From Alphaproteobacteria bacterium (lineage in GTDB: Bacteria > Pseudomonadota > Alphaproteobacteria > ATCC43930 > CGMCC-115725), in NCBI GenBank assembly GCA_019240125.1, contig JAFAYW010000047.1:1-55817 (forward strand): a DNA stretch of 55,817 nt, given 5' to 3'. Positions within the stretch are counted from its first letter, which is position 1; the number at the start of each line of letters is the position of its first letter. The notes under the pieces were generated by a model. The model was not told the origin of the DNA and did not search any database. It worked only from the letters and a program-made list of their open reading frames with translations. Of the stretch, positions 27,102 through 43,200 are shown piece by piece. A program made the position numbers and the translations under genes.

Positions 27102-28310
27102 TCAGTGGTACGGATCGGCGGCGTCGCGCAACCCGTCGCCGAGAAAGTTAAACGCCAGCACGGTCAGAATTACCGGGATCACCGGCAGCATCAGCCACGG
27201 GTAAAGCGCCACGACGCTGATATTCTGCGCCTCGTTCAACAGCACGCCCCAGCTGGTGATCGGCGGCCGCAAGCCGAGCCCGAGAAATGACAGCGCGGTC
27301 TCTCCGAGGATCATGCCCGGGATTGTCAACGTGGCTGAGGCGATCAGGTGGCTCATGAAGCTTGGTAACAAATGGCGTCCGATGATGCGCGATGGGCGGG
27401 CGCCCATCAGCACTGCCGCGGTACAGAAATCCTCCTCACGCAGCGCCAGTAGTTTTGATCGCACCGCGCGGGCAAGGTGGGTCCACTCGATCATCCCGAG
27501 AATGATGGTGATGCCGAAATACACGAGGATGGGGCTCCAGGTAACCGGCAGGATTGCCGATAGCGCCATCCAGAGCGGCAGATGCGGAAAGGATTGGACG
27601 ACCTCAATTCCGCGTTGGATCAGCATATCGGTCCAGCCGCCGTAATAGCCGGCAATGCCGCCGATCATGATGCCGAGGGTAAAGCTGACCGTGACGCCGA
27701 TCAGACCCACCGTCAGCGAAATGCGTGCACCATAGACGATGCGCGATAGCAGGTCGCGCCCGAGGCGGTCGGTTCCCAATAGGAACAGCTCACCGCCCTG
27801 CGCCGGGCAGAAGAGGTGAACGTCGCCGCGAATGACGCCCCAGAACACATATGGGTCGGCGTGGCAGAAAAAGCGGATTTGTTCGTGCTTCTGATGGTCC
27901 GGCGTGTAGACACGACGAAGCTGCTTCATATCAAGCTGGTAGGTAAAGCCGTCAACATAGGGCCAGGTGATATGGCCGTCGGCCAGGATCCGGACGCGCT
28001 GCGGCGGCGCGTAGATGAAATCGGTATGGCGCGAGTCGAGCCCATAGGGCGCGATCATCTCCGAAAACAAGATCGTCGCGTAAAAGACCAACAACAGAGC
28101 GCCCGACGCCACCGCAATGCGATGCCTGCGAAATCGCCACCACATCAGGCGCAGCGGCGCGGCACGGTAGAACCGCTCCTGCGCTGGCGTCATAGCATCG
28201 GTCGCGTAAGGATCGAACGGCGCCGGCGAGACGTAATGCGGCAGCGACTCGTCGCCGCGCCGCGGCGGCAGGCGCGCCTGATCGGGACCGGCGAGCCCGA
28301 TCTCGCTCAT
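27102..28310 (-). CDS. Opp/Dpp-type ABC transporter permease (DppC-like) with long periplasmic loop
   Basis: A 402-residue inner-membrane permease. TM1 is at about residues 65-88. The family entry motif LGTDRLGRDLLSRIVYGARI is at 178-197, followed by five more helices. The EAA loop is near AAVLMGARPSRIIGRHLLP, and GETALSFLGLGLRPP is also typical. The stretch between TM1 and the motif (about residues 90-176) is much longer than in ordinary DppC and contains two cysteines (Cys149, Cys168). It overlaps the DppB-like gene by ATGA and ends the ten-gene minus-strand unit. It should pair with the DppB-like subunit to import an oligopeptide or oligosaccharide. Confidence 0.9.
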   Translation of the reverse strand: MSEIGLAGPDQARLPPRRGDESLPHYVSPAPFDPYATDAMTPAQERFYRAAPLRLMWWRFRRHRIAVASGALLLVFYATILFSEMIAPYGLDSRHTDFIYAPPQRVRILADGHITWPYVDGFTYQLDMKQLRRVYTPDHQKHEQIRFFCHADPYVFWGVIRGDVHLFCPAQGGELFLLGTDRLGRDLLSRIVYGARISLTVGLIGVTVSFTLGIMIGGIAGYYGGWTDMLIQRGIEVVQSFPHLPLWMALSAILPVTWSPILVYFGITIILGMIEWTHLARAVRSKLLALREEDFCTAAVLMGARPSRIIGRHLLPSFMSHLIASATLTIPGMILGETALSFLGLGLRPPITSWGVLLNEAQNISVVALYPWLMLPVIPVILTVLAFNFLGDGLRDAADPYH

Positions 28311-29305
28311 TCCCCATGCCCCGCATGCAACCGGATACGCGGGTCGAATGCGGCCAGCGCCAGATCCGACAGGAACACCCCGATCACCGTCAGAAACGCC
28401 ATGAACATCAGGAAGGAGCCGGCGAGGAACATATCCTGACCCCGCAACGCATCGAGCAGCATCGGCCCGGTTGTCGGCAGCGACATCACCACCGACACCA
28501 CCGCCGCGCCCGAGATGACATGCGGCAGAAGCGACCCGATATCCGAGATAAACGGGTTGAGTGCGAGCCGCAGCGGGTACTTGAACAAGACCTTGAGCGG
28601 ATGCAGCCCCTTTGCCCGGGCGGTCACGACATATTGCTTTTGCAGCTCATCGAGCAGATTGGCGCGGAGGCGCCGGATCATCGCCGCGGTTCCCGCCGTG
28701 CCGATCACGATCACCGGGATCCAGATGTGCGCGAAGACCGAACCGACCTTGCCCCAGGACCACGGCTTGTCGAGGTATTTCGCGTCCATCAGACCGCCGA
28801 CCGAGATTCCGAAATAGACATGCGCCAGGTACACCAACACCAGCGCCAGCAGGAAACTCGGCGTCGCCAAACCGAGAAAACCCAGAAAGGTCAGCGTGTA
28901 ATCGCCCATGCTGTACTGGTGCGTGGCTGAATAGACGCCGATCGGAAAAGCAACCGCGTAGGTGAAGAGGATCGTGACAAACGAAACCACGAAGGTCAGC
29001 AGCAGCCGGTCGCCGACGACCTTGTTGACTGGCATATCGTAGAGGAAGGAATACCCCATATCGCCGTGCAACAGCCCGACGACCCAGTACAGATATTGCT
29101 CCCATAGCGGTTTATCGAAGCCGTATTGAGCCTTGAGAAAGGCAATCTTGGCGAGGTTTGCCTTCTCGCCCTGGCTCTGCAACTCGGCAATGTAGGTCGA
29201 GAAGTAGTCGCCCGGCGGCAAATGGATGATCGTGAAGATGACGATGCTGATGGCGATCATCGTCGGGATCATGATCAGGATGCGCCGCACGAGATAACCC
29301 AGCAT
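28307..29305 (-). CDS. Opp/Dpp-type ABC transporter permease (DppB-like)
   Basis: A 332-residue permease from the ATG at 29305 (MLGYLVRRILIMIPTMIAIS), which is the usual DppB start; the open frame extends further upstream but without family resemblance. Typical blocks are QYGFDKPLWEQYLYWVVGLL, GDMGYSF, the coupling loop YVVTARAKGLHPLKVLFKYP, and ISGAAVVSVVMSLPTTG. Six transmembrane helices are expected. It is 58 nt downstream of the binding-protein gene and overlaps the DppC-like gene by four bases. Confidence 0.92.
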   Translation of the reverse strand: MLGYLVRRILIMIPTMIAISIVIFTIIHLPPGDYFSTYIAELQSQGEKANLAKIAFLKAQYGFDKPLWEQYLYWVVGLLHGDMGYSFLYDMPVNKVVGDRLLLTFVVSFVTILFTYAVAFPIGVYSATHQYSMGDYTLTFLGFLGLATPSFLLALVLVYLAHVYFGISVGGLMDAKYLDKPWSWGKVGSVFAHIWIPVIVIGTAGTAAMIRRLRANLLDELQKQYVVTARAKGLHPLKVLFKYPLRLALNPFISDIGSLLPHVISGAAVVSVVMSLPTTGPMLLDALRGQDMFLAGSFLMFMAFLTVIGVFLSDLALAAFDPRIRLHAGHGE

Positions 29306-29363
29306 CAGATCGTTCTCTGACGCGCCAGTCGGAACATTGCCACCGAATGCAGCATCCGCTCGC

Positions 29364-31298
29364 TCAGTGCGGTCGGTCAACCAGCTCGGCGGAAGCCGCC
29401 GGGCCGCCGCTGCGATCGAACCAGAACCCGTCCGGCTTATAGATTCCGAAATGCGCGCCGGGGTCCCAGTTATAGATGCCGTCCTCTGGCACATTACGCA
29501 GGCGCGCATTGACGACAACTGGCTGCTGCACACCCGCGATCAAGCCGATCGAATAAACCTCGTCGGCCCAAATGCGCAGCATTTCGTGCCATGGTTCAAG
29601 GTGTCCCTCGGCGTCCGACGCATCAAGCCAGCGTTGATATAGCTGCTGCAATTGTATCGCCGAGGGCATGTCGACCGTCTCACCCGCGTTACCCTTGGTC
29701 TCGAAATACTCACCCCATTTCGGCCATTCGAGCTGCTGCTGCGAGGTCGGGGCGAACTCCCACGGCGACATGTCTGCGGTCGCGAGGCCGTTCTCAATCC
29801 CCTTGTCGAGCGACATGATCGTTTCGCCGGAGAACACGCGGCGGCGGAATAGGGTCAATTGCATCGGCCGCGAAAATAACCGGATACCCACCTTTGCCCA
29901 CGAATCGCGGACCAATTCCAATACATCGGACTTTTCGGAAGCCTCCCCGGAATCCTCCACGACAATATCGAGCGGCCGCCCATCCGGAAGTTGCCGCAAC
30001 CCGTCGCTTCCTCTCTTCAGGCCGATCAGGTCGAGCAGGCGATTGGCTTCGGTCGTGTCATAGGACGACCACGCGGCGCGGTACTCGGGACGATAAAGCG
30101 GGCTCTCCGGCAAGACCGTATTCTGCCCCTCGGTTGCGAGCCCGAAATAGATCACCTGATTGATCTCATGCCGATCGGTCGCCAGGGACAGGGCGCGCCG
30201 GAACCGGACGTCGCGCAACAGCCCGCGCCACACATCATCGCTGACATTAAGATTGGGATACAGCGCCAGCTGGCTGCCCGGGCCGGTTCGCCACAGCACA
30301 ACCTTATAGCCACTCTCCGACTCGCCGGCCTTGAGGAAGGTGTAATCGTCGAAACTCAGATATCGCGCCTGCAGGTCGCTCTCGCCGGCGCCTGTCTTGG
30401 CCGGGATGATCTTGGCTGAGGCGATCGAATAGACGACGCGATCGATATAAGGGAGCTGATGCCCCGCACCATCGACCCGGTAGTAATACGGGTTGCGTTC
30501 GAAGACGATTTGATCTGCCGGCAATCTCGTCTTGAGGACCCAGGGATCGAGCGATGGCAGGTCAGGATTGTCGTTGCGGTACATCCCGTCCATTTTGTTG
30601 TGCAAAGCGGCCCAATTTCTGACTCCGGCGCTCTTGACCATTTCCTTCAGTTTCGCCGGCTCCGCGTATTTTTCATGAAATTTCTTGAGGTAATGCGCGG
30701 GGCGGTAAATGAAGAGCGGATCGGGACCCGCGAGAGCTGGCAGGAAGAGCGGGTTGGGCGTGTCCCAGCTATATCGGACCGTTGTCGGGTCAAGCACCGT
30801 GAATTTGGGCCGATTGCCGTTTGGCAGCATCGACACCGGCAGACCCGATGGCGACAGGTCGGGATTGTTGATCACATCCTCGAACCAATAGCGGAAATCC
30901 TCGGTGGTAAAGGGTTTACCGTCCGACCATTTGTGCCCCGCCCGCAGGTGTAGTGTGAAGACGCGGTCGCCTTCCACATCAACCTTTTCCAGCATATCGG
31001 GCACCAGCGCCAAGGCCGGGGTGTAAGCGACCAGCCGCGCATATGCGTAGACAACCATCAGCCGGGTATCCTTGGGACCGGCCATCAGCATTCGCAGTTC
31101 GCCGCCCGGCTGGCCCAGCTGTTCCAGTTCGGCAAGCGCCGGAGCTTGCGGGATGCGTTCCGCCACGGGGGGCAAGGCACCGCTCGCGACCAGCGGTGCC
31201 AGCTCGGGCGTTTCCAGCAACGCCGTCCAACCCGCGCGAGGCGTCGCGCACAGCACAACGAGGCACAACAGCAAGCGGAAGGCGGCGACGCGGCGCAT
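29364..31298 (-). CDS. Extracellular solute-binding protein, family 5
   Basis: A 644-residue periplasmic binding protein (SBP_bac_5) for the adjacent ABC importer. The start at 31298 gives a signal peptide (MRRVAAFRLLLCLVVLCATP). The mature N-terminus contains GALPPVAERIPQAPALAELE, a PPVxERxPxxP pattern I associate with a branch of Opp-like binding proteins that is not restricted to peptides. Other family blocks are LRAGHKWSDGKPFTTEDFRY, YRVDGAGHQLPYIDRVVY and RFRRALSLATDRHEINQVIY. It starts two bases after the ATPase stop codon. The ligand is unknown; the neighbouring glycosyltransferases make an oligosaccharide or glycopeptide plausible. Confidence 0.9.
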   Translation of the reverse strand: MRRVAAFRLLLCLVVLCATPRAGWTALLETPELAPLVASGALPPVAERIPQAPALAELEQLGQPGGELRMLMAGPKDTRLMVVYAYARLVAYTPALALVPDMLEKVDVEGDRVFTLHLRAGHKWSDGKPFTTEDFRYWFEDVINNPDLSPSGLPVSMLPNGNRPKFTVLDPTTVRYSWDTPNPLFLPALAGPDPLFIYRPAHYLKKFHEKYAEPAKLKEMVKSAGVRNWAALHNKMDGMYRNDNPDLPSLDPWVLKTRLPADQIVFERNPYYYRVDGAGHQLPYIDRVVYSIASAKIIPAKTGAGESDLQARYLSFDDYTFLKAGESESGYKVVLWRTGPGSQLALYPNLNVSDDVWRGLLRDVRFRRALSLATDRHEINQVIYFGLATEGQNTVLPESPLYRPEYRAAWSSYDTTEANRLLDLIGLKRGSDGLRQLPDGRPLDIVVEDSGEASEKSDVLELVRDSWAKVGIRLFSRPMQLTLFRRRVFSGETIMSLDKGIENGLATADMSPWEFAPTSQQQLEWPKWGEYFETKGNAGETVDMPSAIQLQQLYQRWLDASDAEGHLEPWHEMLRIWADEVYSIGLIAGVQQPVVVNARLRNVPEDGIYNWDPGAHFGIYKPDGFWFDRSGGPAASAELVDRPH

Positions 31299-31300
31299 CC

Positions 31301-33207
<1,907 letters not shown>

Positions 33208-33211
<4 letters not shown>

Positions 33212-33759
33212 GCCAGCTCTCCAAGGCGTTCGCCCTGCCCCGGCACCCGTATACCGAGCGCTTCGAGATTGGCCGCCGTTGCGTCGGCAAGGTTGAGATT
33301 GCGGGTGGCCGCGGCGAAGGTGGCGCGGCGGACAACCTCGTCGAACCCGTCAAGACGGCTGTCGATGCTGATCCTTGCGCCAGCACCGCTCAGTTCGAGC
33401 TGCATCCAGCCGTCGCGTTTGTCGCGCCGTGTCGAGTAATACGCGAGCCGCATCCGCTCGAGTTCGGCCCACGAAATCGCCCGGGGCACCAATCCCGTTA
33501 TCCTGATGCCGGTCTCGGTCAACTCAAGACGCGTCTGGTGGCGCACCACGGTGCGCGCACCGAACACCGCGAACACCGCACCAAAGCCGCCGAGGATCAC
33601 CGCCGGCACGGTGGCAACCGGGACAACCGCGAGGATGATAGCCACCGGCACCAGCCCCGCGGCAGAACGGAGATAATCGCCGACCATCGCCGATACCGGG
33701 TACCCATGCCGAGTGGCGGCCAGCCCTTCGTCGGTCGCGATAGCTCCGGCCGACATCAT
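33208..33759 (-). CDS. Small membrane protein with PH-like cytoplasmic domain, unknown function
   Basis: A 183-residue protein from the ATG at 33759, which overlaps the deacetylase-like stop as ATGA. Residues about 35-70 are two close hydrophobic segments (LVPVAIILAVVPVATVPAVI and LGGFGAVFAVFG). The rest is a beta-rich soluble region (LELTETGIRITGLVPRAISW, MQLELSGAGARISIDSRLDG) resembling the bacterial PH-domain proteins of the YdbS/YcxB type, followed by a helical tail. I do not recognise a specific family. Its position between the deacetylase-like gene and the ABC ATPase, with overlaps on both sides, ties it to the same unit. Confidence 0.7.
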
Positions 33760-34529
33760 GCCATCAACTCGGTCGGCGCGGCCCAAAGCACGCCAGGATG
33801 GCGCCGCGTGACGCTCAGCAATCGGTCGAGAAAACCTCGGGTCAGGTCATCCATGATCAGGTGATGCGTCAAAATACCCAGCGGCTCGCCATAATGCTGC
33901 GCCTGCCGTGCCGCGCCGAGCCGACGCACGATTTCGCCCAATGCCGGTTCGGTGCCCACGAATCCTCGATCTTGCCTCCAGGCTGTCAGATCGACATGCA
34001 CGTCCAGTATCACTGAACTAACAGTTCCGGGGAGTACTTGTCGCGAGGTCATCCCTGACACTTTGGTTAGGCCCAAAGCCCGCAGGAGCGGAAGAAACTC
34101 CGCGGCGATGCGGTTCCACGGCGGGACAAAGATCGGCAACGCACGAGTCCCGAACTGGGATCGCTGGAGCGCCATCCCGGCGCCGATTTCCGCCGCGACC
34201 AATACCGGGGAGCGACCAGGCGGGTATTCGCTCTTCTTGCCGGCCACTGCGTGATTCACGTGCCGCCAGCCGTGCTGCAACACGGTGACGGTCGACGGCA
34301 GAGCCGCGGCCAGTTCCGGCTGGGCCAGAGCCGGGATTACCGCCAAGCCGATCGGTGTCCCCGCCGCCAGCCGCAACATGTCGGCCAGCGAGGCGGTCGG
34401 ACGCACCGCGTCGTCGTCGCGCCACCAGAACGTGGCGATGTTTCCCGTCGCTGCCCATCGATCGAGTTCCTCGACGAGATCCGCCCAGCCACATGTTTTT
34501 GCCGCTTCCGAAGGCGGCATGATTTTCAT
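33756..34529 (-). CDS. Polysaccharide deacetylase-like (NodB-fold) protein
   Basis: A 257-residue protein that looks like a divergent carbohydrate esterase 4. In place of the TFDD motif it has TFWWRDDDA (Asp38-40). The metal motif appears as QHGWRHVNH (His86, His90, His93). FVPPWNR (134-140) matches the RPPxG/xPPWxR motif, and later DVHVD and ILTHH supply candidate catalytic residues. There is no signal peptide, so it may act on cytosolic sugar intermediates. It overlaps the MurG-like gene upstream and the membrane protein downstream by ATGA. It probably removes an N-acetyl group from a glycan precursor made by the neighbouring glycosyltransferases. Confidence 0.72.
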   Translation of the reverse strand: MKIMPPSEAAKTCGWADLVEELDRWAATGNIATFWWRDDDAVRPTASLADMLRLAAGTPIGLAVIPALAQPELAAALPSTVTVLQHGWRHVNHAVAGKKSEYPPGRSPVLVAAEIGAGMALQRSQFGTRALPIFVPPWNRIAAEFLPLLRALGLTKVSGMTSRQVLPGTVSSVILDVHVDLTAWRQDRGFVGTEPALGEIVRRLGAARQAQHYGEPLGILTHHLIMDDLTRGFLDRLLSVTRRHPGVLWAAPTELMA

Positions 34530-36836: not shown

Positions 36837-38111
36837 TTATTCGGCCGCGTCCAAGACCGCGACAGTTGGCTGTGACGGCAATCCAAACATGACGGCAAGC
36901 CTATCGATGCCATCATGCATGTCAAATGACTGGCGTATCCGCGCTTCCCCTGCCGCGGCCAGCCGCGCCCGCAAAGCTGGGTTGCCTGCCAGAGTCGCGA
37001 TGGCGGTCGCCAATTCGGCCGGCGACGCGGGCGGCACCAGCCAGCCTGACTGGCCGTGCTCGATCAATTCGGCGACGCCCGGCAGCGTCGTCGAGATGCA
37101 CGCAAGCCGCTGGCTCTGAGCCTCCATCAGAACGTTGGGCAGCCCGTCCTGATCGTTGTCGCGGCCAACCTTGGCGGCGAGTACGAAGAGGTCGGCCTGC
37201 CGGTAGGCCTCCAGCACGGCCGGCTGGGGTTGCGTCCCGCGCCATTCGATCCTGTCGCCAAGGCCGAGTGCCGTCGCCTGCCGCTTCAGCGGGCCGGACA
37301 GCGCCCCACCCCCGATATGAACACAGCGCCAGGCAAGCTCCGGCGACAGGTGGCTGAGGGCATGGAGCAGATCGTCATAGCCCTTCTTTTCGACCGCTCG
37401 ACCGACCGACAGGATCATCACTGGATGCGCCGGGTCGCTGCCATCCGGGCCAGCCGGTCGGACCGGGGCGACGGCGAAACGATCGAGATCGAGCCCGTGG
37501 TAGGCCAGCCCCACCCTGCCGGGCGTGGCGGCCAGCCCGGCGAGATGCGCGTGGCCACTGGCTGTGCAAGTCACCGCCCACCGAGCCGAGGCGAGTTTGC
37601 CGCGCTTCTCCCACGCGGGGGTGGTCCAGATGTCCTTGGCGTGGGCCGATACTGACCACGGCAGGTCTCGCATTACAGCGGCGTAGCGCGTCACCGAGCC
37701 CGGGGTGTGCAGGAAGTGCGCATGCAACTGCTCGATCCGCGGGCTCAGCTCGGCCGCCAATACCAGCGCCTGACCAAAGCGGCGGCCGCGATTGGGTGTC
37801 GGATCGCGCAGCAGATCAGCCAGCCAGGCGCGGCGGGCGGCGCGATAGCCCGGCAGGCGGCGCGCCCGGCGCCAGGCCGCGAAGACCCGCCGCGGGTCAT
37901 CGCGCAGATACTCCGGCAGATACCGGACCGGCGCGCCGATCTGGTCATGGATCGGATGCCGGGTTCGGTCGGTCGGATGCCGCAGCGAGATGATCTCGAT
38001 ATCGAGGCCCCGCTGTTCCAGCGCCAGTATTTCCTGCGCGATGAACGTTTCGGACAGACGCGGATAGCCCTTCAGCACAAAAGCGACTCGGCGCGAGCTC
38101 GGGTCGTTCAT
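36837..38111 (-). CDS. Glycosyltransferase family 4 protein (colanic acid-type)
   Basis: A 424-residue GT4-type enzyme. The N-terminus reads VAFVLKGYPRLSETFIAQEI, the classic start of WcaL/AmsK-like colanic acid and exopolysaccharide glycosyltransferases. Mid-protein HAHFLHTPGSVTRYA and the C-terminal blocks ILSVGRAVEKKGYDDLLHAL, DGLPNVLMEAQSQRLACIST and GVAELIEHGQSGWLVPP all fit. It overlaps the MurG-like gene upstream by ATGA. The sugar donor is unknown. Confidence 0.92.
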   Translation of the reverse strand: MNDPSSRRVAFVLKGYPRLSETFIAQEILALEQRGLDIEIISLRHPTDRTRHPIHDQIGAPVRYLPEYLRDDPRRVFAAWRRARRLPGYRAARRAWLADLLRDPTPNRGRRFGQALVLAAELSPRIEQLHAHFLHTPGSVTRYAAVMRDLPWSVSAHAKDIWTTPAWEKRGKLASARWAVTCTASGHAHLAGLAATPGRVGLAYHGLDLDRFAVAPVRPAGPDGSDPAHPVMILSVGRAVEKKGYDDLLHALSHLSPELAWRCVHIGGGALSGPLKRQATALGLGDRIEWRGTQPQPAVLEAYRQADLFVLAAKVGRDNDQDGLPNVLMEAQSQRLACISTTLPGVAELIEHGQSGWLVPPASPAELATAIATLAGNPALRARLAAAGEARIRQSFDMHDGIDRLAVMFGLPSQPTVAVLDAAE

Positions 38112-39322
38112 GCCGGCGCCGCGGCGACGCGCACCGGTTCGGCGCGCCCGAAATTAAGCCATTTACGGACCAGCCGATTGACGTTCGGCATGCCGTCCAG
38201 CAGCCCCGGCACGACAATCGACGACGGCTTCGCCTGCTGCCGGAGCTGCATCAAGGCAGCCACCATGGTTCTCGGATCGCGTCCCGCCTCGTCCGTCAGC
38301 ACCGCGACGAGCCCGAGATCGGCGGCGCGCTGAGCCCGGATGAATTGCTCGAGGCGTGGCGCGGTGCGCGGCACAATCAGCGCCGGCTTATCGAAGGACA
38401 GGATCTCGCAGAATGTATTGTAGCCGCCCATGGCGACAATACCGGTGGCGCGCGCCATCAGGGTTTCGACATGCGCATCAAAGGTAATCGCCCGCACCTT
38501 GGGCAGCCGCGCGACACGGGCGGTGAATCCGGCTTGTAGATCGGGCAACATAAACGGGCCGAAGACGATGAGAATTGGCGGTAATCCGCCTGGATCATGC
38601 TCATAGGCCGACAGGACCCAGTCGATCAGCCCGTCGCCATCGCCGCCACCACCCGGTGTTGCCAGTAGGAATGGACCGCTTGGGATCTCGGTGAGCTTGG
38701 CGCTGACACTCGTCGGGACATGCCGGCGCAGATAACCGGTATAGATCATCCGACGCCGCACGCTGGCCGGCAGTTCGATGCCGGCAAGCGGATCGCAGAT
38801 CTGCGGCAATCCGTAGACCCAGACTTCATTGTAATAGTCGCTCAACGCGGGCACGGCGTTCTTTCGCTCCCACTCGTTCTCGAGCGCATTCGGGTCGTCC
38901 ATCACATCCCGCAACCCGAGGATGAGGGGCGTAGCGCGATCGCGCATGAGATCGAGCGTCGCCCGCATTTCGCCCCGTAAACCCAACGGCTCCTTGTCGA
39001 CGATCAGGATGTCGGGATCGAAGATGTCGGCGGTGTGCCGGATGATCGAGGAGCGCATCGCAAGCGTCTCCTCGATGTCGATATGCAGGTTTAGCGAGAC
39101 GTACTCACCATTGCGGAGCTTGATTACGCCGGGAATGCGTACAAAATCGACTCGGGAGCGAAAATCGAAGCTGCCGATGATCGGCGATCCCGACAAAATC
39201 AGGACCGAAAGGGACGAATCTGCCTCGACGAGCGAATGTGCGATTGCTCGACACCGCCGCAAATGGCCGAGTCCGAACGTGTCATGACTGTAGATGAGTA
39301 TACGTTTGTGATCGCGCGCCAC
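38108..39322 (-). CDS. MurG-like GT-B glycosyltransferase, copy 1
   Basis: A 404-residue protein and the first gene of the ten-gene minus-strand unit. It starts RILIYSHDTFGLGHLRRCRA with the GLGH loop. FLLATPGGGGDGDGLIDWVL and the donor-binding GIVAMGGYNTFCEILSFDKP follow in the C-terminal half. A shared pattern shows that it and the protein at 34526-35722 are paralogues. Conserved proteins of this type are annotated only as glycosyltransferases. Its start lies 37 nt from the divergent ABC exporter gene, so the two units probably share a control region. Confidence 0.83.
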   Translation of the reverse strand: MARDHKRILIYSHDTFGLGHLRRCRAIAHSLVEADSSLSVLILSGSPIIGSFDFRSRVDFVRIPGVIKLRNGEYVSLNLHIDIEETLAMRSSIIRHTADIFDPDILIVDKEPLGLRGEMRATLDLMRDRATPLILGLRDVMDDPNALENEWERKNAVPALSDYYNEVWVYGLPQICDPLAGIELPASVRRRMIYTGYLRRHVPTSVSAKLTEIPSGPFLLATPGGGGDGDGLIDWVLSAYEHDPGGLPPILIVFGPFMLPDLQAGFTARVARLPKVRAITFDAHVETLMARATGIVAMGGYNTFCEILSFDKPALIVPRTAPRLEQFIRAQRAADLGLVAVLTDEAGRDPRTMVAALMQLRQQAKPSSIVVPGLLDGMPNVNRLVRKWLNFGRAEPVRVAAAPA

Positions 39323-39359: not shown

Positions 39360-42176
39360 ATGGGGGCGACGCCGTTGCGAGATGAATTTTTTTCTGGACT
39401 GGCGACGATGAAGGGACTGGCGGCCGCCGTGATCTCAGCGGAGCAGGTGCTGCGGCCGCGTTTTCGTTTGCGCCTGCGCGACAGACGGTCTGCCGCTACG
39501 ACCGAGCCAGCACCGGCACCGGCCACCGATCTCGAACCAACGATCTATCGCTTTATTCTCAAGCACAGCCTGCGGCAACAGATCGTATTGCTGCTGCTGA
39601 CCTGCGCGTCCTTTCCCTTTCTTTACTTTTCACTGAGCCTGCCAAAGTCGATCGTCAACCAGGCGATCCGCTCCGACGCGCCGCCGCACCATCAGATTTT
39701 CGGCATTGATTTCGACCGCGTGCCCTACCTGGTCGTTTTGTGCATGGGTTTTCTGGCTCTTGTCCTGATCAACGGCGCATTCAAATATTGTATTAATACG
39801 TATAAAGGTCAGCTTGGCGAACGCATGTTGCGGCGATTTCGCTATCAGCTATATCAGCGGCTGTTGCGATTTCCACTGAATTACTTTCAGAAGACATCCA
39901 CCGCGCAGATCATCCCGATGATCACCGCAGAGTGCGAGTCGCTTGGCGGCTTTATCGGCGATGCTTTCGCCATTCCTGCCTTTCAGGGCGGCACGCTGAT
40001 TACAATCGTTCTTTTCATGTTCATGCAGGACCCGGTGCTCGGCGCCGCCGCGGTAGCGTTGTACCCGATGCAGGGATACGTGATCCCCAAGTTGCAGCGC
40101 AAGGTCAACGCGCTCGGTAAACGGCGGGTCCGCACGATCCGCGAGGTGGCTGACCGGGTGCACGAAAGCGCGGCCGGCATCATCGAGATCCGTGCGCATG
40201 ACACGGTACGATTATACTTGGCGGATTTCGCCCATCTGATGGGCACGATCTATGATATCCGGTTTGAGATCTATCGCCGCAAGTTTTTTGTGAAGTTCCT
40301 CAACAACTTCATTGCGCAGCTGACACCATTCTTCTTTTATCTGATCGGCGGGTATCTTGTTATAGCCGGAGACCTTTCATTCGGCGCGCTTGTCGCGGTC
40401 CTCGCTGCCTATAAGGACATGGCGTCGCCCTGGAAAGAGTTGCTGGATTTCTATCAGCAAAAAGAAGATTCAAGAATAAAATACGAGCAGATCGTCGAGC
40501 AGTTTCAACCCGCTGGCCTTTTCGACGCGGCGCTCTTGCTGGAGGAGCCGGAGAACATTCCGCGACTCACCGGTGAAATCGTGGTTAGCAATCTCTCGTT
40601 CGAGGACGAACAGAGTCGCTCAGTCGATGGCGTCAGCTTCACCGCCGCGCTCGACGAGCACATCGCGATCATCGGCCAGAGCGGCAGCGGTAAAACGGAA
40701 TTGGGCCAGGTGCTGGCGCGCCTCGTCGAACCAAGCGGCGGGCGCATCATGATCGGCGGCTTCAGCCTCGGCGATCTGGCGCTGCCGGTCATTGGACGGC
40801 GGATCGGCTATGCCGGCGCCATCCCGCATCTGTTTCCCGGCAGCCTGCGCGACAACATGCTGCTGGCGCTGCGGCACCGGCCCCTGCGGCCGCCGCACTA
40901 TGACGACGCGACCGGACGCCGCCGCGCCCGCCAGATCGACGAGGCACGCCGATCCGGCAATATCGATTTCGATCTGCAGGCGGATTGGATCGACTACGAC
41001 GCAGCGGGGGTGGATACGCCAAAGGCGCTGTCGCAGCGGATCGCGGAAATCCTGCGGCAACTGAACTTTGAGGATGATGTCTACAGCTTCGGCTTGCGCT
41101 GGCGGATCGACCCTCGGGCCGATCCCGAATTAACGGAACGGCTGCTGCGGGCGCGTACGGCCCTCGCGGAACGGCTAGTCACCGACGGCATCACGCAACT
41201 CGTCGAGACCTACGATGTCGAGCGCTACAACACGAACGCGAGCGTCGCCGAAAACCTGCTCTTTGGAACCCCCATAGGACCGGTGTTCGATTTTGAGGCA
41301 CTAGCTGAAAACAGCTATGTCCTATCCGTGCTCGACAAGGTCGGCCTGACGACCGATCTGCTTAATATCGGCCGCCAGGTCGCCGCCATGATGACCGAGA
41401 TGTTCGGCGGCCTCGCGCCCGAGCATGAGTTTTTTGAGCAATTCTGTTTTATCAACGCGCCCGACCTGCCGATTTTCGCGGCCATTCTGACGGCTATTGA
41501 TGGCGGCGGTGTTGATGCCCTGCGCCAGGACCAGAAGCATAAGCTGCTATCGCTACCCCTCAAACTCATCGTGGCGCGGCATCGTCTCGACTTCCTCGAC
41601 GAAACCATGCAGCAGCGCATTCTCGAAGCGCGCCAGGTATTCCGCCGCGACCTGCCCGAGAAGTACAGCGATCAAATCGAGTTTTTCGATCCCAAACGGT
41701 ACAACGCCGCAGCCTCGCTGCAAGACAACATCCTGATGGGCCGGATCGCGTTTGGCGAAGCCGACGCCCCGCTGCGCATTCCTGAGCTCCTGGCTGAGAT
41801 CGTCGATGCCGTGGATTTGCGTCCGGCGATCGTCGATGTCGGGCTTGAATACAACGTCGGCACCAGCGGTGCGCGCTTATCACAGGCGCAGCGGCAGCAG
41901 GTCGCCATTGCGGCCGCCCTTTTGAAAAAGCCCGATCTGTTAATACTTAATGAAGCAACTTCTGCTCTTGATGCTCAGGCGCAAGCCAAGGTCGCGGACG
42001 GGCTGAGGCAGGAAATGGCGGGACGCGGAATGGTCTGGGTCCTGCATCGCGCGAGCCTGGCCCGGAACTTCGATCGCGTGATGGTCATGAGTGGTGGGAA
42101 ACTTCAGGAACAGGGGCGTTTTGAGGAGTTGAATCGTAACGATTCCCTGACAGCGCTGCTGATGGCAGCTGAATAA
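39360..42176 (+). CDS. ABC exporter with greatly enlarged, degenerate nucleotide-binding domain
   Basis: A 938-residue fused permease/ATPase (an alternative ATG lies at 39408). Residues about 65-355 are an ABC exporter membrane domain, with KGQLGERMLRRFRYQLYQRL as the entry helix. The ATPase part starts near 405, with an intact Walker A GQSGSGKT (439-446). The Q-loop region reads GYAGAIPHLFPGSL, lacking the usual glutamine. The signature reads LSQAQ (840-844) and Walker B reads LLILNEATSALD, with Asn864 in place of the usual aspartate; the H-loop His896 is kept. Walker A and signature are nearly 400 residues apart, about 290 more than usual. Inside this insert are two copies of a repeat ending RYNxxAS..[ED]N[LI]L.G (592-636 and 750-794). 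It probably exports the product of the adjacent glycosyltransferases. Confidence 0.88.
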   Translation: MGATPLRDEFFSGLATMKGLAAAVISAEQVLRPRFRLRLRDRRSAATTEPAPAPATDLEPTIYRFILKHSLRQQIVLLLLTCASFPFLYFSLSLPKSIVNQAIRSDAPPHHQIFGIDFDRVPYLVVLCMGFLALVLINGAFKYCINTYKGQLGERMLRRFRYQLYQRLLRFPLNYFQKTSTAQIIPMITAECESLGGFIGDAFAIPAFQGGTLITIVLFMFMQDPVLGAAAVALYPMQGYVIPKLQRKVNALGKRRVRTIREVADRVHESAAGIIEIRAHDTVRLYLADFAHLMGTIYDIRFEIYRRKFFVKFLNNFIAQLTPFFFYLIGGYLVIAGDLSFGALVAVLAAYKDMASPWKELLDFYQQKEDSRIKYEQIVEQFQPAGLFDAALLLEEPENIPRLTGEIVVSNLSFEDEQSRSVDGVSFTAALDEHIAIIGQSGSGKTELGQVLARLVEPSGGRIMIGGFSLGDLALPVIGRRIGYAGAIPHLFPGSLRDNMLLALRHRPLRPPHYDDATGRRRARQIDEARRSGNIDFDLQADWIDYDAAGVDTPKALSQRIAEILRQLNFEDDVYSFGLRWRIDPRADPELTERLLRARTALAERLVTDGITQLVETYDVERYNTNASVAENLLFGTPIGPVFDFEALAENSYVLSVLDKVGLTTDLLNIGRQVAAMMTEMFGGLAPEHEFFEQFCFINAPDLPIFAAILTAIDGGGVDALRQDQKHKLLSLPLKLIVARHRLDFLDETMQQRILEARQVFRRDLPEKYSDQIEFFDPKRYNAAASLQDNILMGRIAFGEADAPLRIPELLAEIVDAVDLRPAIVDVGLEYNVGTSGARLSQAQRQQVAIAAALLKKPDLLILNEATSALDAQAQAKVADGLRQEMAGRGMVWVLHRASLARNFDRVMVMSGGKLQEQGRFEELNRNDSLTALLMAAE

Positions 42177-42205: not shown

Positions 42206-42703
42206 GTGAGCCTGTTGCAGGAATACGAGTTGCTGCGGCGCGTGCCGTTTTTTGCGGATATTGAGCCAGCCAAGCTGAAACTGCTGACCTTCATGAGCGA
42301 GCGTGTCGCCTACGACGCTGACAAGACCCTGTTCCGTCAGGGCGACCGGGCCGACGCGGCCTATCTGATCATCGAAGGCGAGGCTGACATCATCGTAGAG
42401 CTGCCGACCGGTCCGATGACGATCGCGACGCTCGGGCCGCATGAAATCGTCGGCGAGATGGCGATCCTGTGCGATGTGCCGCGTACTGCGACGGTCCGTG
42501 CAAAAAGCCGGTTGGTAACGTTGCGGATTGCGAAAGACCCGTTCATGCGGATGGTTCGGGAGTTCCCGAACATCGCGGTGTCGATCATGCGCGAGCTGGC
42601 CCATCGCCTTGAGCTCACCAATAACCAGTTGCGCTCGGCCTTGTCCGAGGTGCGGCGCCTGCGCGATGCCGGCATCGAACCGGCGAGCGCAGCGGCTGAA
42701 TGA
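42206..42703 (+). CDS. Stand-alone cyclic-nucleotide-binding-domain protein
   Basis: A 165-residue protein with one cNMP-binding domain and no DNA-binding domain. It starts SLLQEYELLRRVPFFADIEP, like the CRP and Popeye families. The phosphate-binding cassette reads IVGEMAILCDVPRTATVRA, with the key Glu84 and Arg93-Thr94 present, so cAMP or cGMP binding is plausible. The C-terminus is a long helix (ELAHRLELTNNQLRSALSEV) that could dimerise or contact a partner. The GTG at 42206 follows GGGAGGA by about six bases. It is 29 nt after the ABC exporter gene and overlaps the methyltransferase by ATGA, which suggests it regulates the exporter. Confidence 0.9.
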   Translation: MSLLQEYELLRRVPFFADIEPAKLKLLTFMSERVAYDADKTLFRQGDRADAAYLIIEGEADIIVELPTGPMTIATLGPHEIVGEMAILCDVPRTATVRAKSRLVTLRIAKDPFMRMVREFPNIAVSIMRELAHRLELTNNQLRSALSEVRRLRDAGIEPASAAAE

Positions 42704-43200
42704 GTCGGCTCGACAGCTTTATCCGCCGTCTGGAGGCACAACGCGCCTGCCTGAATAGCGCCGTCGCCCGCATACGCGACATTCCCGGCTATATCCTCGA
42801 ATTAGGCCTGGGTAACGGCCGCACCTTCGACCACCTGCGTGAACTGCTGCCCGATCGCGATATCTACGTCTGCGAGCGAAGGGTTGCCGCGCACCCGGAT
42901 TGTGTACCGCCGCCCGACCGCCTGATCCTCGGCGATATGCGCGAGACATTGGCGAGCGCTGGCGAATGGCTGGAAGGTCGTGTAGCGCTGATGCATTTCG
43001 ATGTCGGTACCGGAGATGCCGCCGGCAATGTCGTTCTCGCGGCCGAGCTCACGCCGCTGATCGTGCCACTGTTGTGCGAGGGAGCAATCCTGGTTTCCGA
43101 CCCCGAGATCTCCAGCGCTCTCCTGAAGCCAATGGACTTGCCGCAAGGAGTCGCGCCCGGTCGCTATCGAATGTACCGCCGACAGAACGTCACCGCCTGA
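42700..43200 (+). CDS. Small class I SAM-dependent methyltransferase
   Basis: A 166-residue Rossmann-fold protein. Motif I is ILELGLGNGRTFDHLRELLP (residues 32-51), and the acidic end of strand 2 is YVCERR (Glu59). RLILGDMRETL fits motif II/III, and ALMHFDVGTGDA fits motif IV. It is short for the family and has little room for a substrate-binding cap, so it may methylate a small molecule or a glycan carried by a partner. It overlaps the cNMP-binding gene by ATGA and is convergent with xthA, eight bases away. Confidence 0.85.
   Translation: MSRLDSFIRRLEAQRACLNSAVARIRDIPGYILELGLGNGRTFDHLRELLPDRDIYVCERRVAAHPDCVPPPDRLILGDMRETLASAGEWLEGRVALMHFDVGTGDAAGNVVLAAELTPLIVPLLCEGAILVSDPEISSALLKPMDLPQGVAPGRYRMYRRQNVTA

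What the first reader, a model, noticed from the sequence alone, without database searches (positions are those of the whole stretch)
39360..42176. ABC exporter whose ATPase domain carries a ~290-residue insert built from internal repeats and has lost key catalytic residues
In a canonical ABC ATPase, Walker A and the signature motif are about 100 residues apart; here they are nearly 400 apart (439-446 and 840-844). The insert contains two copies of a segment (592-636 and 750-794) that align position by position, each ending in RYN..AS..[ED]N[LI]L.G. A third related motif (GSLRDNM, 494-500) sits at the normal post-Q-loop site. This suggests tandem duplication of the Q-loop/helical region. The Q-loop glutamine, the Walker B aspartate (N864) and the LSGGQ signature (LSQAQ) are all altered, while Walker A, Walker B Glu865 and the H-loop are kept. 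ATP may be bound but turned over slowly or only on activation.
Basis: partly seen in the sequence, partly recalled or inferred. Interest (0 to 1): 0.78.

Follow-up and report, generated by a model that had tools for sequence, protein, structure and literature searches.

The report
Cyclic-nucleotide-linked ABC transporter with dead ATPase
This bacterial membrane protein is built like an ATP-driven export pump, but in every relative examined several of the ATP-burning residues have eroded while the membrane part stays better conserved, and a cyclic-nucleotide-binding-type domain is fused to it or encoded next door in most of them, so it likely moves its cargo under the control of a signal rather than by burning ATP.

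Summary
The 938-residue protein is an ABC-exporter membrane domain plus an ATPase domain in which Walker A and signature lie 401 residues apart (104 in 25 of 25 MsbA-like controls). Profile comparison shows that the ~297-residue insert holds tandem copies of the Q-loop/helical segment (copies 2 and 3: hhalign 98%, E 2e-13).

The changes are not a quirk of one strain. The family occurs in 58 of 190 alphaproteobacterial genomes. All 78 aligned members lack at least 4 of 9 catalytic residues; none keeps K, S/T, D, E and H together. Conservation is inverted: the ATPase core is more alike than the membrane domain in 0 of 435 pairs, against 298 of 300 control pairs. Two related groups lack the ATPase domain; one sits in copper-resistance operons. 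A cyclic-nucleotide-binding domain is the next gene or, in 8 loci, fused to the C-terminus (65 of 70 loci together). Glycosyltransferases and, in the plasmid relatives read, an importer lie beside it.

Best reading: a pseudo-ATPase ABC transporter, probably gated by a nucleotide signal and not powered by ATP hydrolysis, likely moving a glycan or glycolipid. Transport, ligand and cargo are untested. I found no description in the papers searched.

The parts
39360..42176 (+). CDS of the pseudo-ATPase ABC transporter, 938 aa (a start at 39408 is also possible)
   Evidence: Pfam ABC_membrane and split ABC_tran
39543..40514 (+). transmembrane domain, residues 62-385, long helices of the type IV exporter fold
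   Evidence: (PF00664 4e-21), AF2 model, fold matches
40560..40802 (+). first part of the nucleotide-binding domain (residues 401-481) with Walker A
40674..40697 (+). Walker A GQSGSGKT, residues 439-446 (kept here, decayed in many relatives)
40803..41183 (+). repeat copy 1 (residues 482-608): Q-loop strand with the Gln replaced by Ala, first helical segment
   Evidence: hhalign to MsbA Q-loop 94.6%; to copies 2 and 3 about 67% each
41184..41657 (+). repeat copy 2 (residues 609-766): extra helical segment, RYNTNASVAENLLFG
   Evidence: hhalign to copy 3 98%, E 2e-13; 6.7% to MsbA
41658..41867 (+). repeat copy 3 (residues 767-836): RYNAAASLQDNILMG, runs on into the native signature helix
   Evidence: hhalign to MsbA 99.5%, E 7e-23
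41868..42149 (+). last part of the nucleotide-binding domain (residues 837-930)
41877..41891 (+). altered signature LSQAQ (residues 840-844)
41937..41954 (+). altered Walker B LLILNE (D to N864, E865 kept)
42206..42703 (+). cyclic-nucleotide-binding protein, 165 aa, 29 bases after the transporter, binding-cassette motif intact
   Evidence: Pfam PF00027 9e-20; motif; fused in 8 relatives and in A. ramasamyi
42700..43200 (+). SAM methyltransferase (Methyltransf_17), overlaps the previous gene by 4 bases
   Evidence: PF12692 1e-54; in 30 loci
38108..39322 (-). glycosyltransferase, GT28-like, divergent from the transporter
   Evidence: PF04101; conserved neighbour
36837..38111 (-). glycosyltransferase, group 1
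   Evidence: PF00534
35722..36825 (-). glycosyltransferase, group 1
   Evidence: PF00534
34526..35722 (-). second GT28-like glycosyltransferase
   Evidence: PF04101
33756..34529 (-). conserved 257-aa ORF, no Pfam family; deacetylase-like by eye only
   Evidence: in 26 loci; no Pfam hit
27102..33211 (-). Opp-type importer: two permeases, family 5 binding protein, double ATPase
   Evidence: Pfam; importer genes (ATPase, permeases, in four of five records also the binding protein) lie beside the relatives in the plasmid records read

Best explanation
The protein belongs to a widespread alphaproteobacterial family of ABC exporters whose ATPase residues are eroded in every member examined and whose partner is a cyclic-nucleotide-binding-type domain, so it likely works as a signal-gated transporter that does not depend on ATP hydrolysis. 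Shown: the membrane domain keeps the exporter fold in the model and is the best-conserved part; the ATPase domain keeps its fold in the model but not its catalytic residues; it has gained extra copies of its helical segment; the cNMP-binding domain is the next gene or is fused to the C-terminus in most loci; related membrane domains exist without any ATPase domain. Inferred: two copies form the usual exporter dimer. The enlarged pseudo-ATPase domain would act as a docking platform that passes the state of the cNMP sensor to the membrane domain. The membrane domain would then open or flip its cargo using a gradient or the cargo's own concentration, possibly through a set of charged residues that the MsbA-like controls lack. 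The cargo is probably the glycan or glycolipid made by the neighbouring glycosyltransferases. The ligand could be cAMP, cGMP or another nucleotide such as ppGpp.
For: (1) Catalytic loss: of 78 rows, K445 is kept in 49, the S/T after it in 13, Q-loop Gln in 16, signature Ser in 45 and its two Gly in 6 and 5, Walker B Asp in 10, Glu in 46, H-loop His in 32. Every row lacks 4-9 of 9; none keeps all of K, S/T, D, E and H. In MsbA-like controls from the same genomes 25 of 25 keep all nine; frames were chosen there by profile, because the earlier 23-row control had been picked for holding LSGGQ. (2) Inverted conservation: ATPase core more alike than membrane domain in 0 of 435 family pairs (membrane 61.4%, ATPase core 45.7%, insert 50.0%) against 298 of 300 control pairs (45.5%, 66.8%). 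(3) Of the 19 ATPase/insert positions conserved in at least 95% of 78 rows none is one of the nine catalytic residues; several are repeat motifs such as N632, G636, N790, G794. (4) Relatives without an ATPase domain: copper-operon group and orphan group; in 14 of 17 such loci no ABC ATPase was found in the stretch held. (5) cNMP domain adjacent or fused in 65 of 70 loci: 63 of 68 plus the window and L013; 8 are fusions; 0 of 25 control loci, which have short flanks. A ninth fusion is A. ramasamyi. Binding motif: Gly 53, Glu 50, Arg 53, Ala 53 of 53 separate proteins. (6) Nineteen charged membrane-domain positions held by at least 85% of 77 full-length and of 18 copper-group rows but by at most 13% of 23 control rows, e.g. 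K142, E154, R161, E193, R256, R261, K352, D353, E360. (7) Conserved glycosyltransferase neighbourhood.
Against: The window protein itself is among the 12 of 78 rows with the fewest losses (four: Q-loop Gln, both signature Gly, Walker B Asp): K445, T446, E865, the D-loop Asp and H896 are intact, so it may still bind ATP. 23 of 78 rows keep K, E and H together. I made no transport, binding or ATPase measurement and found none in print. In the four fused members with destroyed Walker A the cNMP-binding motif is also partly altered (by eye, sequences). Five of 70 loci have no cNMP domain in the stretch held: L010, L072, L075, L108 (a 5-kb contig) and the own-genome paralogue L109. The NBD-less groups have no cNMP domain either (0 of 17 loci) and a different setting, so their function may differ. 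The orphan group keeps only part of the charged set. Rows are not independent: L073 lies inside L005, and L090/L120, L006/L105 are near-identical. Only 2 of the 25 control loci pass the MsbA curated cut-off. The tree is a quick one with an unresolved backbone, so whether erosion preceded NBD loss is not shown.
Confidence: 0.55

Rival explanations
1. Slow or conditional ATPase: the transporter still binds ATP and uses binding, or slow hydrolysis, as its power stroke or switch, with the cNMP protein as an activator.
For: The window protein keeps Walker A, E865, D-loop and H896. K or R at the Walker A lysine in 73 of 78 rows; the ATPase fold is complete in the model (238 of 239 residues of the ComA domain matched at 1.8 A).
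Against: S/T after the lysine is Asp or Glu in 44 of 78 rows, Walker B Asp is lost in 68 of 78, no row has LSGGQ, Walker A is gone in L010, L123, L124, L127, L128, and related membrane domains lack the ATPase domain altogether.
Confidence: 0.22
2. Degenerate half of a heterodimer: it pairs with an ordinary ABC half-transporter encoded elsewhere, which supplies the working ATP site.
For: Heterodimeric exporters with one poor site (recalled) are among the best fold matches (TmrAB, TM287/288). 30 of 30 genomes searched also hold MsbA-like exporters (E<=1e-60, 4 to 14 matches each).
Against: No second exporter gene recurs beside it; the recurrent ABC neighbours seen are importer ATPases. Both the Walker A side and the signature side are eroded, which heterodimer partners usually do not share (recalled). 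The membrane domain is more conserved than in the MsbA-like controls.
Confidence: 0.13
3. Not a transporter: a membrane scaffold or sensor that organises the glycosyltransferases and relays the cNMP signal.
For: Conserved glycosyltransferase cluster, eroded ATPase, fused sensor-type domain.
Against: The exporter membrane domain is the best-conserved part and carries family-specific charged residues, which a mere anchor would not need.
Confidence: 0.08
4. Decay: pseudogenes on the way to loss.
For: Catalytic residues lost.
Against: Long frames in 58 of 190 genomes, few with a stop inside; strong conservation of the membrane domain and of insert motifs; conserved gene order.
Confidence: 0.01

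Closest known systems
MsbA and other type IV (ABCB-like) ABC exporters
   Same: Exporter membrane domain fused to one ATPase domain; best NCBIfam match MsbA (E 6e-65); fold matches TmrAB, Sav1866, TM287/288
   Different: 219.8 bits against a cut-off of 602; ~297-residue insert; eroded ATPase; inverted conservation; 12-19% membrane-domain identity between P0001 and 23 MsbA-like rows
SbmA/BacA family (SLiPT), proton-driven peptide transporters
   Same: Exporter-type membrane domain that works without an ATPase domain; the copper-operon relatives also have an extra predicted N-terminal helix. Precedent for NBD loss: PMC13316013 (passages)
   Different: 0 of 50 NBD-less relatives match an SbmA_BacA Pfam family at E<=0.1, 50 of 50 match ABC_membrane; SLiPTs are proposed to descend from YddA-like transporters (PMC13316013 passages); the full-length family keeps an ATPase-fold domain
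HetC of Nostoc, peptidase ABC exporter with a cNMP-binding domain
   Same: ABC exporter joined to a cyclic-nucleotide-binding domain, which binds ppGpp in vitro and is needed in vivo (PMC10986499, passages)
   Different: HetC has the domain at the N-terminus, a peptidase domain, and an ATPase residue essential for function; here the domain is C-terminal or separate and the ATPase is eroded
Heterodimeric exporters with one degenerate site (TM287/288, TmrAB, BmrCD)
   Same: Substituted catalytic residues in an exporter ATPase domain (recalled for these systems)
   Different: There the partner subunit supplies a working site (recalled); here no partner exporter gene recurs in the neighbourhood

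Membership tests
Type IV ABC exporter | exporter membrane domain fused to an ABC ATPase-fold domain | tested here: met
Type IV ABC exporter | intact Walker A, Q-loop, LSGGQ, Walker B Asp-Glu and H-loop | tested here: not met
   every one of 78 rows lacks at least 4 of 9; controls 25 of 25 keep all nine
Type IV ABC exporter | ATP-driven transport | not testable with these tools
   needs biochemistry
MsbA (TIGR02203) | score over the curated cut-off of 602 bits | tested here: not met
   219.8 bits
SLiPT (SbmA/BacA) | no ATPase domain | tested here: not met
   not met by the window protein; met by the copper and orphan groups
SLiPT (SbmA/BacA) | sequence match to the SbmA_BacA family | tested here: not met
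   not listed for P0001 nor for any of 50 NBD-less relatives
SLiPT (SbmA/BacA) | glutamate ladder in the membrane cavity, proton coupling | tested here: inconclusive
   family-specific conserved charges exist but were not placed in a dimer cavity
cNMP-regulated ABC exporter (HetC-like) | cNMP-binding domain on the same polypeptide | tested here: not met
   a separate adjacent gene in the window; met in 8 relatives of the set and in A. ramasamyi
cNMP-regulated ABC exporter (HetC-like) | peptidase domain and working ATPase | tested here: not met
   no peptidase family found; ATPase residues eroded
cNMP-binding domain (PF00027), the partner gene | phosphate-binding cassette with Gly-Glu and Arg | tested here: met
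   window motif VGEMAIL..PRTA; Gly 53, Glu 50, Arg 53 of 53

The most novel reading that the evidence does not exclude
A third way to run an ABC-fold transporter: the ATPase engine has been turned into a dead regulatory platform, enlarged by tandem copies of its own helical subdomain, and a cyclic-nucleotide sensor has taken over as the switch, making a nucleotide-gated, ATP-independent flippase or channel; sister lineages then dropped the dead engine and were recruited to copper-resistance operons.
Probability: 0.35. Interest if true: 0.9.

Novelty: new variant of a known kind. Interest (0 to 1): 0.74.

Why it matters
ABC transporters are defined by a conserved ATPase that drives a variable membrane part. 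Here the rule is reversed across a large family found in 58 of 190 alphaproteobacterial genomes sampled, with relatives on Sinorhizobium and Rhizobium plasmids that can be worked on. It offers a natural series (degenerate ATPase, destroyed Walker A with fused sensor-type domain, no ATPase at all) for asking what the exporter membrane domain can do without ATP, and how a signal domain could replace ATP as the switch. It also flags records annotated 'ABC transporter ATP-binding protein' (many of the annotated rows listed) whose name is likely misleading.

Tried and rejected
Pseudogene or assembly error: rejected, since the frame is intact and the architecture family-wide. Strain-specific mutation: rejected. 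Insert as an ordinary known domain: a 327-residue stretch covering the insert gave no match among solved-structure sequences and Pfam showed no extra family above its cut-off; it is best explained as copies of the protein's own helical segment. I did not fold the insert alone, so a structural match of it is not excluded. Single-sequence repeat identity was not above shuffles and is not used. Nucleotide repeats: one chance-like 23-nt direct pair and one 20-nt inverted pair.

Controls and rows: the first MsbA control (23 of 25 loci) had been picked by requiring LSGGQ, which made its signature count circular; one search repeated it for all 25 loci by profile (the two left out read VSGGQ and LSGGE, and keep all nine residues). 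G139/L200 looked NBD-less but is the contig-edge half of a split gene and was dropped from the NBD-less counts after the tree; G178 is also split over two contigs. The copper-group list included L013, a full-length locus, by a range slip; it is the only one of those 11 with a cNMP domain. The 4752 homologues and the 672 may include ordinary exporters or fragments (only the best 120 were listed each time), so I do not use these totals as family sizes. The model of the NBD-less protein is of moderate confidence (mean pLDDT 74) and its best PDB match is weak (E 4e-4).

Papers: search listings only, except passages of PMC13316013, PMC10986499, PMC10945364 and PMC6180224; one search listed 10 of 343 papers, 10 of 19 and 8 of 16. 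SMb20813 is called the msbA homologue of S. meliloti (PMC10945364); I could not tie that name to the pSymB locus because the held records carry no annotation there. Gene numbers tried were guesses. The labels 'histidine phosphatase' for a recurrent cluster gene and 'deacetylase-like' for 33756-34529 are my recollection of motifs, not from a call.
Full report
WHAT IS THERE. The frame 39360-42176 encodes a 938-residue protein with an ABC exporter membrane domain (PF00664, E 4e-21) and an ABC ATPase domain that Pfam sees in two pieces. Walker A (439-446) and the signature (840-844) are 401 residues apart; in 25 of 25 MsbA-like exporters taken from 25 of the same genomes they are 104 apart. These controls are the best TIGR02203 match of their genome; only two of the 25 pass the curated MsbA cut-off. 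The AlphaFold2 model (mean pLDDT 81.5, ATPase and insert mostly around 90) is an exporter half-molecule: VIA-align matches 238 of 239 residues of the ComA nucleotide-binding domain at 1.8 A within model residues 401-936, so the ATPase fold is complete and the insert is extra.

THE INSERT. Built from the 120-row alignment A1, profiles of 476-612, 609-770 and 767-870 were compared. Copies 2 and 3 match at 98% (E 2e-13); copy 1 matches each of the others at about 67% (E 5e-5); 12 control comparisons gave 0.1-2.3%. Against a profile of the MsbA Q-loop-to-Walker-B stretch (23 rows), the start of copy 1 matches the native Q-loop (94.6%), copy 3 matches the native post-Q-loop region through Walker B (99.5%, E 7e-23), and copy 2 does not match directly (6.7%). 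So copy 2 is well supported as a duplicate of copy 3, and copy 1 is probably a third, more diverged member. The insert is present in all 78 family rows (spacing 386-408).

THE FAMILY. A search of 190 alphaproteobacterial genomes, the own one included, found it in 58 at E<=1e-100. A sample of 200 genomes of the phylum found it in 16 at E<=1e-90, 15 of them in the same class (the two draws overlap); the one outside, G300, matches over the membrane domain only. L010 is from an Oceanospirillaceae MAG. Among plasmid records 325 match at E<=1e-60, 259 of them over at least 80% of the query, led by Rhizobium and Sinorhizobium. I aligned the window protein with 68 further relatives from loci, after removing rows identical in a core stretch, plus nine listed proteins: 78 rows. 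Some rows remain near-identical.

EROSION OF THE ATPASE. Counts out of 78: Walker A Lys 49 (Arg 24), Ser/Thr 13 (Glu 23, Asp 21), Q-loop Gln 16, signature Ser 45, first Gly 6, second Gly 5, Walker B Asp 10 (Asn 44), Glu 46, H-loop His 32. Each row lacks four to nine of these (four in 12 rows, the window protein among them); none keeps K, S/T, D, E and H together; 23 keep K, E and H. In the 25 controls all nine are kept (Thr for Ser in two). By contrast the near-invariant positions of the ATPase and insert region are others: G461, W543, N632, R758, N790, G794, L840 in 78 of 78, G837 in 77.

INVERTED CONSERVATION. Among 30 genomes' copies, the ATPase core is more alike than the membrane domain in 0 of 435 pairs (means 45.7% and 61.4%; insert 50.0%); over all 78 rows in 85 of 3003 (54.5% membrane, 40.0% core). 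In the controls the ATPase core is more alike in 298 of 300 pairs (66.8% against 45.5%).

RELATIVES WITHOUT AN ATPASE DOMAIN. Nine of the 20 loci from named records matched only the membrane domain: L011, L012, L014-L020. Their frames are 412-453 aa and end after the sixth helix (L018); L001, L002, L004-L010 and L013 are full-length or nearly so, L003 starts at a contig edge. A search with such a protein gave 672 proteins at E<=1e-20 within the allowed length range, of which the best 120 were listed; all 50 members aligned match ABC_membrane. P0001 is 39-46% identical over the membrane domain to 18 rows of this group, 25-33% to seven rows of a second, orphan group (one in the window's own genome, G000:C267), and 12-19% to 23 MsbA-like rows. 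In the 190-genome sample I count one frame of the copper type (G107) and seven of the orphan type. Copper-group neighbours include multicopper oxidase, cupredoxin/CusF, CopB, PCuAC, an outer-membrane efflux protein and P-type ATPases (domains of L011, L012 and L017; recurrence). In 14 of 17 NBD-less loci no ABC ATPase was found in the stretch; the exceptions are a 1031-aa frame in L194, a frame in L196, and a 355-aa ATPase about 4.3 kb away in L198. The quick tree separates the whole group from the MsbA-like rows at 100 but leaves its backbone open.

SHARED CHARGES. Nineteen charged positions of the membrane domain are held by at least 85% of 77 full-length and of 18 copper-group rows and by at most 13% of 23 MsbA-like rows, among them K142, E154, R158, R159, R161, E193, D201, R256, R261, R301, K312, K352, D353, E360. 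Six others (R155, E191, K244, K308, K359, D370) are shared with most controls too. The seven orphan rows keep part of the set: K96, K142, E154, R161, E193 and R261 in all, but K352 and D353 in none. Whether these line a cavity was not tested.

THE cNMP PARTNER. The next gene (42206-42703) is a cyclic-nucleotide-binding protein without a DNA-binding family hit. Clustering put such a gene beside the transporter in 53 of 70 loci, always on the same strand, in 52 of the 53 within 150 bases. A profile search of 68 of those loci found the domain in 63, and every one lies next to or inside the transporter gene except L122, where another frame is listed between; with the window and L013 that is 65 of 70. 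One locus, L073, lies inside L005, so 64 of 69 distinct loci. Eight are fusions at the C-terminus: L007, L009, L071, L081, L123, L124, L127, L128 by profile; Pfam confirms the six of them that I scanned, and the seventh protein of that call, L105, is not a fusion. A named ninth is the Azospirillum ramasamyi protein of 1049 aa, whose residues 911-996 match PF00027. None of 25 control loci has one, but their flanks are only about 1.5 kb. Four of the fused members have no Walker A left; in these the cNMP motif is partly altered too (by eye). In the 53 separate proteins the binding-cassette Gly, Glu, Arg and Ala stand at 53, 50, 53 and 53.

THE CLUSTER. Over the 80 loci pooled (NBD-less ones included) the GT28-like genes occur in 45, the two group-1 glycosyltransferases in 43 and 39, the methyltransferase in 30 and the 257-aa gene in 26. 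The window also has an Opp-type importer at 27102-33211. Importer genes and at least one annotated glycosyltransferase lie beside the relatives in Rhizobium etli p42e, R. ruizarguesonis, Sinorhizobium sp. B11, S. meliloti and Azospirillum ramasamyi; the cNMP protein is the next gene in the first four.

MECHANISM. Shown: erosion, repeats, partner gene and fusions, neighbourhood; the fold rests on predicted models. Inferred: dimerisation, gating by the sensor through the pseudo-ATPase platform, ATP-independent movement of a glycan or glycolipid. The SbmA work (PMC13316013, passages) is the precedent for an exporter-fold protein that lost its ATPase and uses protons; HetC (PMC10986499, passages) is the precedent for a cNMP domain on an ABC exporter. 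This family differs from both in sequence and in architecture. Searches of held papers listed no paper that, by title and abstract start, describes it; most subscription papers are not held.

VERDICT. A confirmed and larger finding than stated: a family-wide pseudo-ATPase ABC transporter tied to a cyclic-nucleotide-binding domain. Energy source, ligand and cargo remain open.

Noticed in passing
own genome G000:C18:15823-18477 (L109): A second full-length member in the same genome, 52% identical, with no cNMP gene and no glycosyltransferase cluster found beside it.
   Followed up: partly
own genome G000:C267:13027-13986 (L110): A 345-residue orphan ABC exporter membrane domain with no ATPase domain and no ABC ATPase gene in the 12-kb stretch held.
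   Followed up: partly
L011, L012, L014-L020, L201: Stand-alone exporter membrane domains beside copper-resistance genes in Roseobacter-group and other Alphaproteobacteria; possible new copper-linked transporter.
   Followed up: partly
window 27102-33211: Opp-type importer genes next to the glycosyltransferase cluster, an arrangement also seen on Rhizobium, Sinorhizobium and Azospirillum plasmids.
   Followed up: partly
window 33208-33786: Conserved 192-aa ORF without a Pfam family, in 23 loci.
   Followed up: no
L005 15015-15575 and 32 other loci: A small gene with an RHG motif (histidine phosphatase by recollection) recurs in the cluster but has no copy in the window cluster.
   Followed up: no
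NC_003078.1 841741-844426: The S. meliloti 1021 pSymB copy is one base longer than in strain 2011 over the same query, a possible frameshift or sequencing difference.
   Followed up: no
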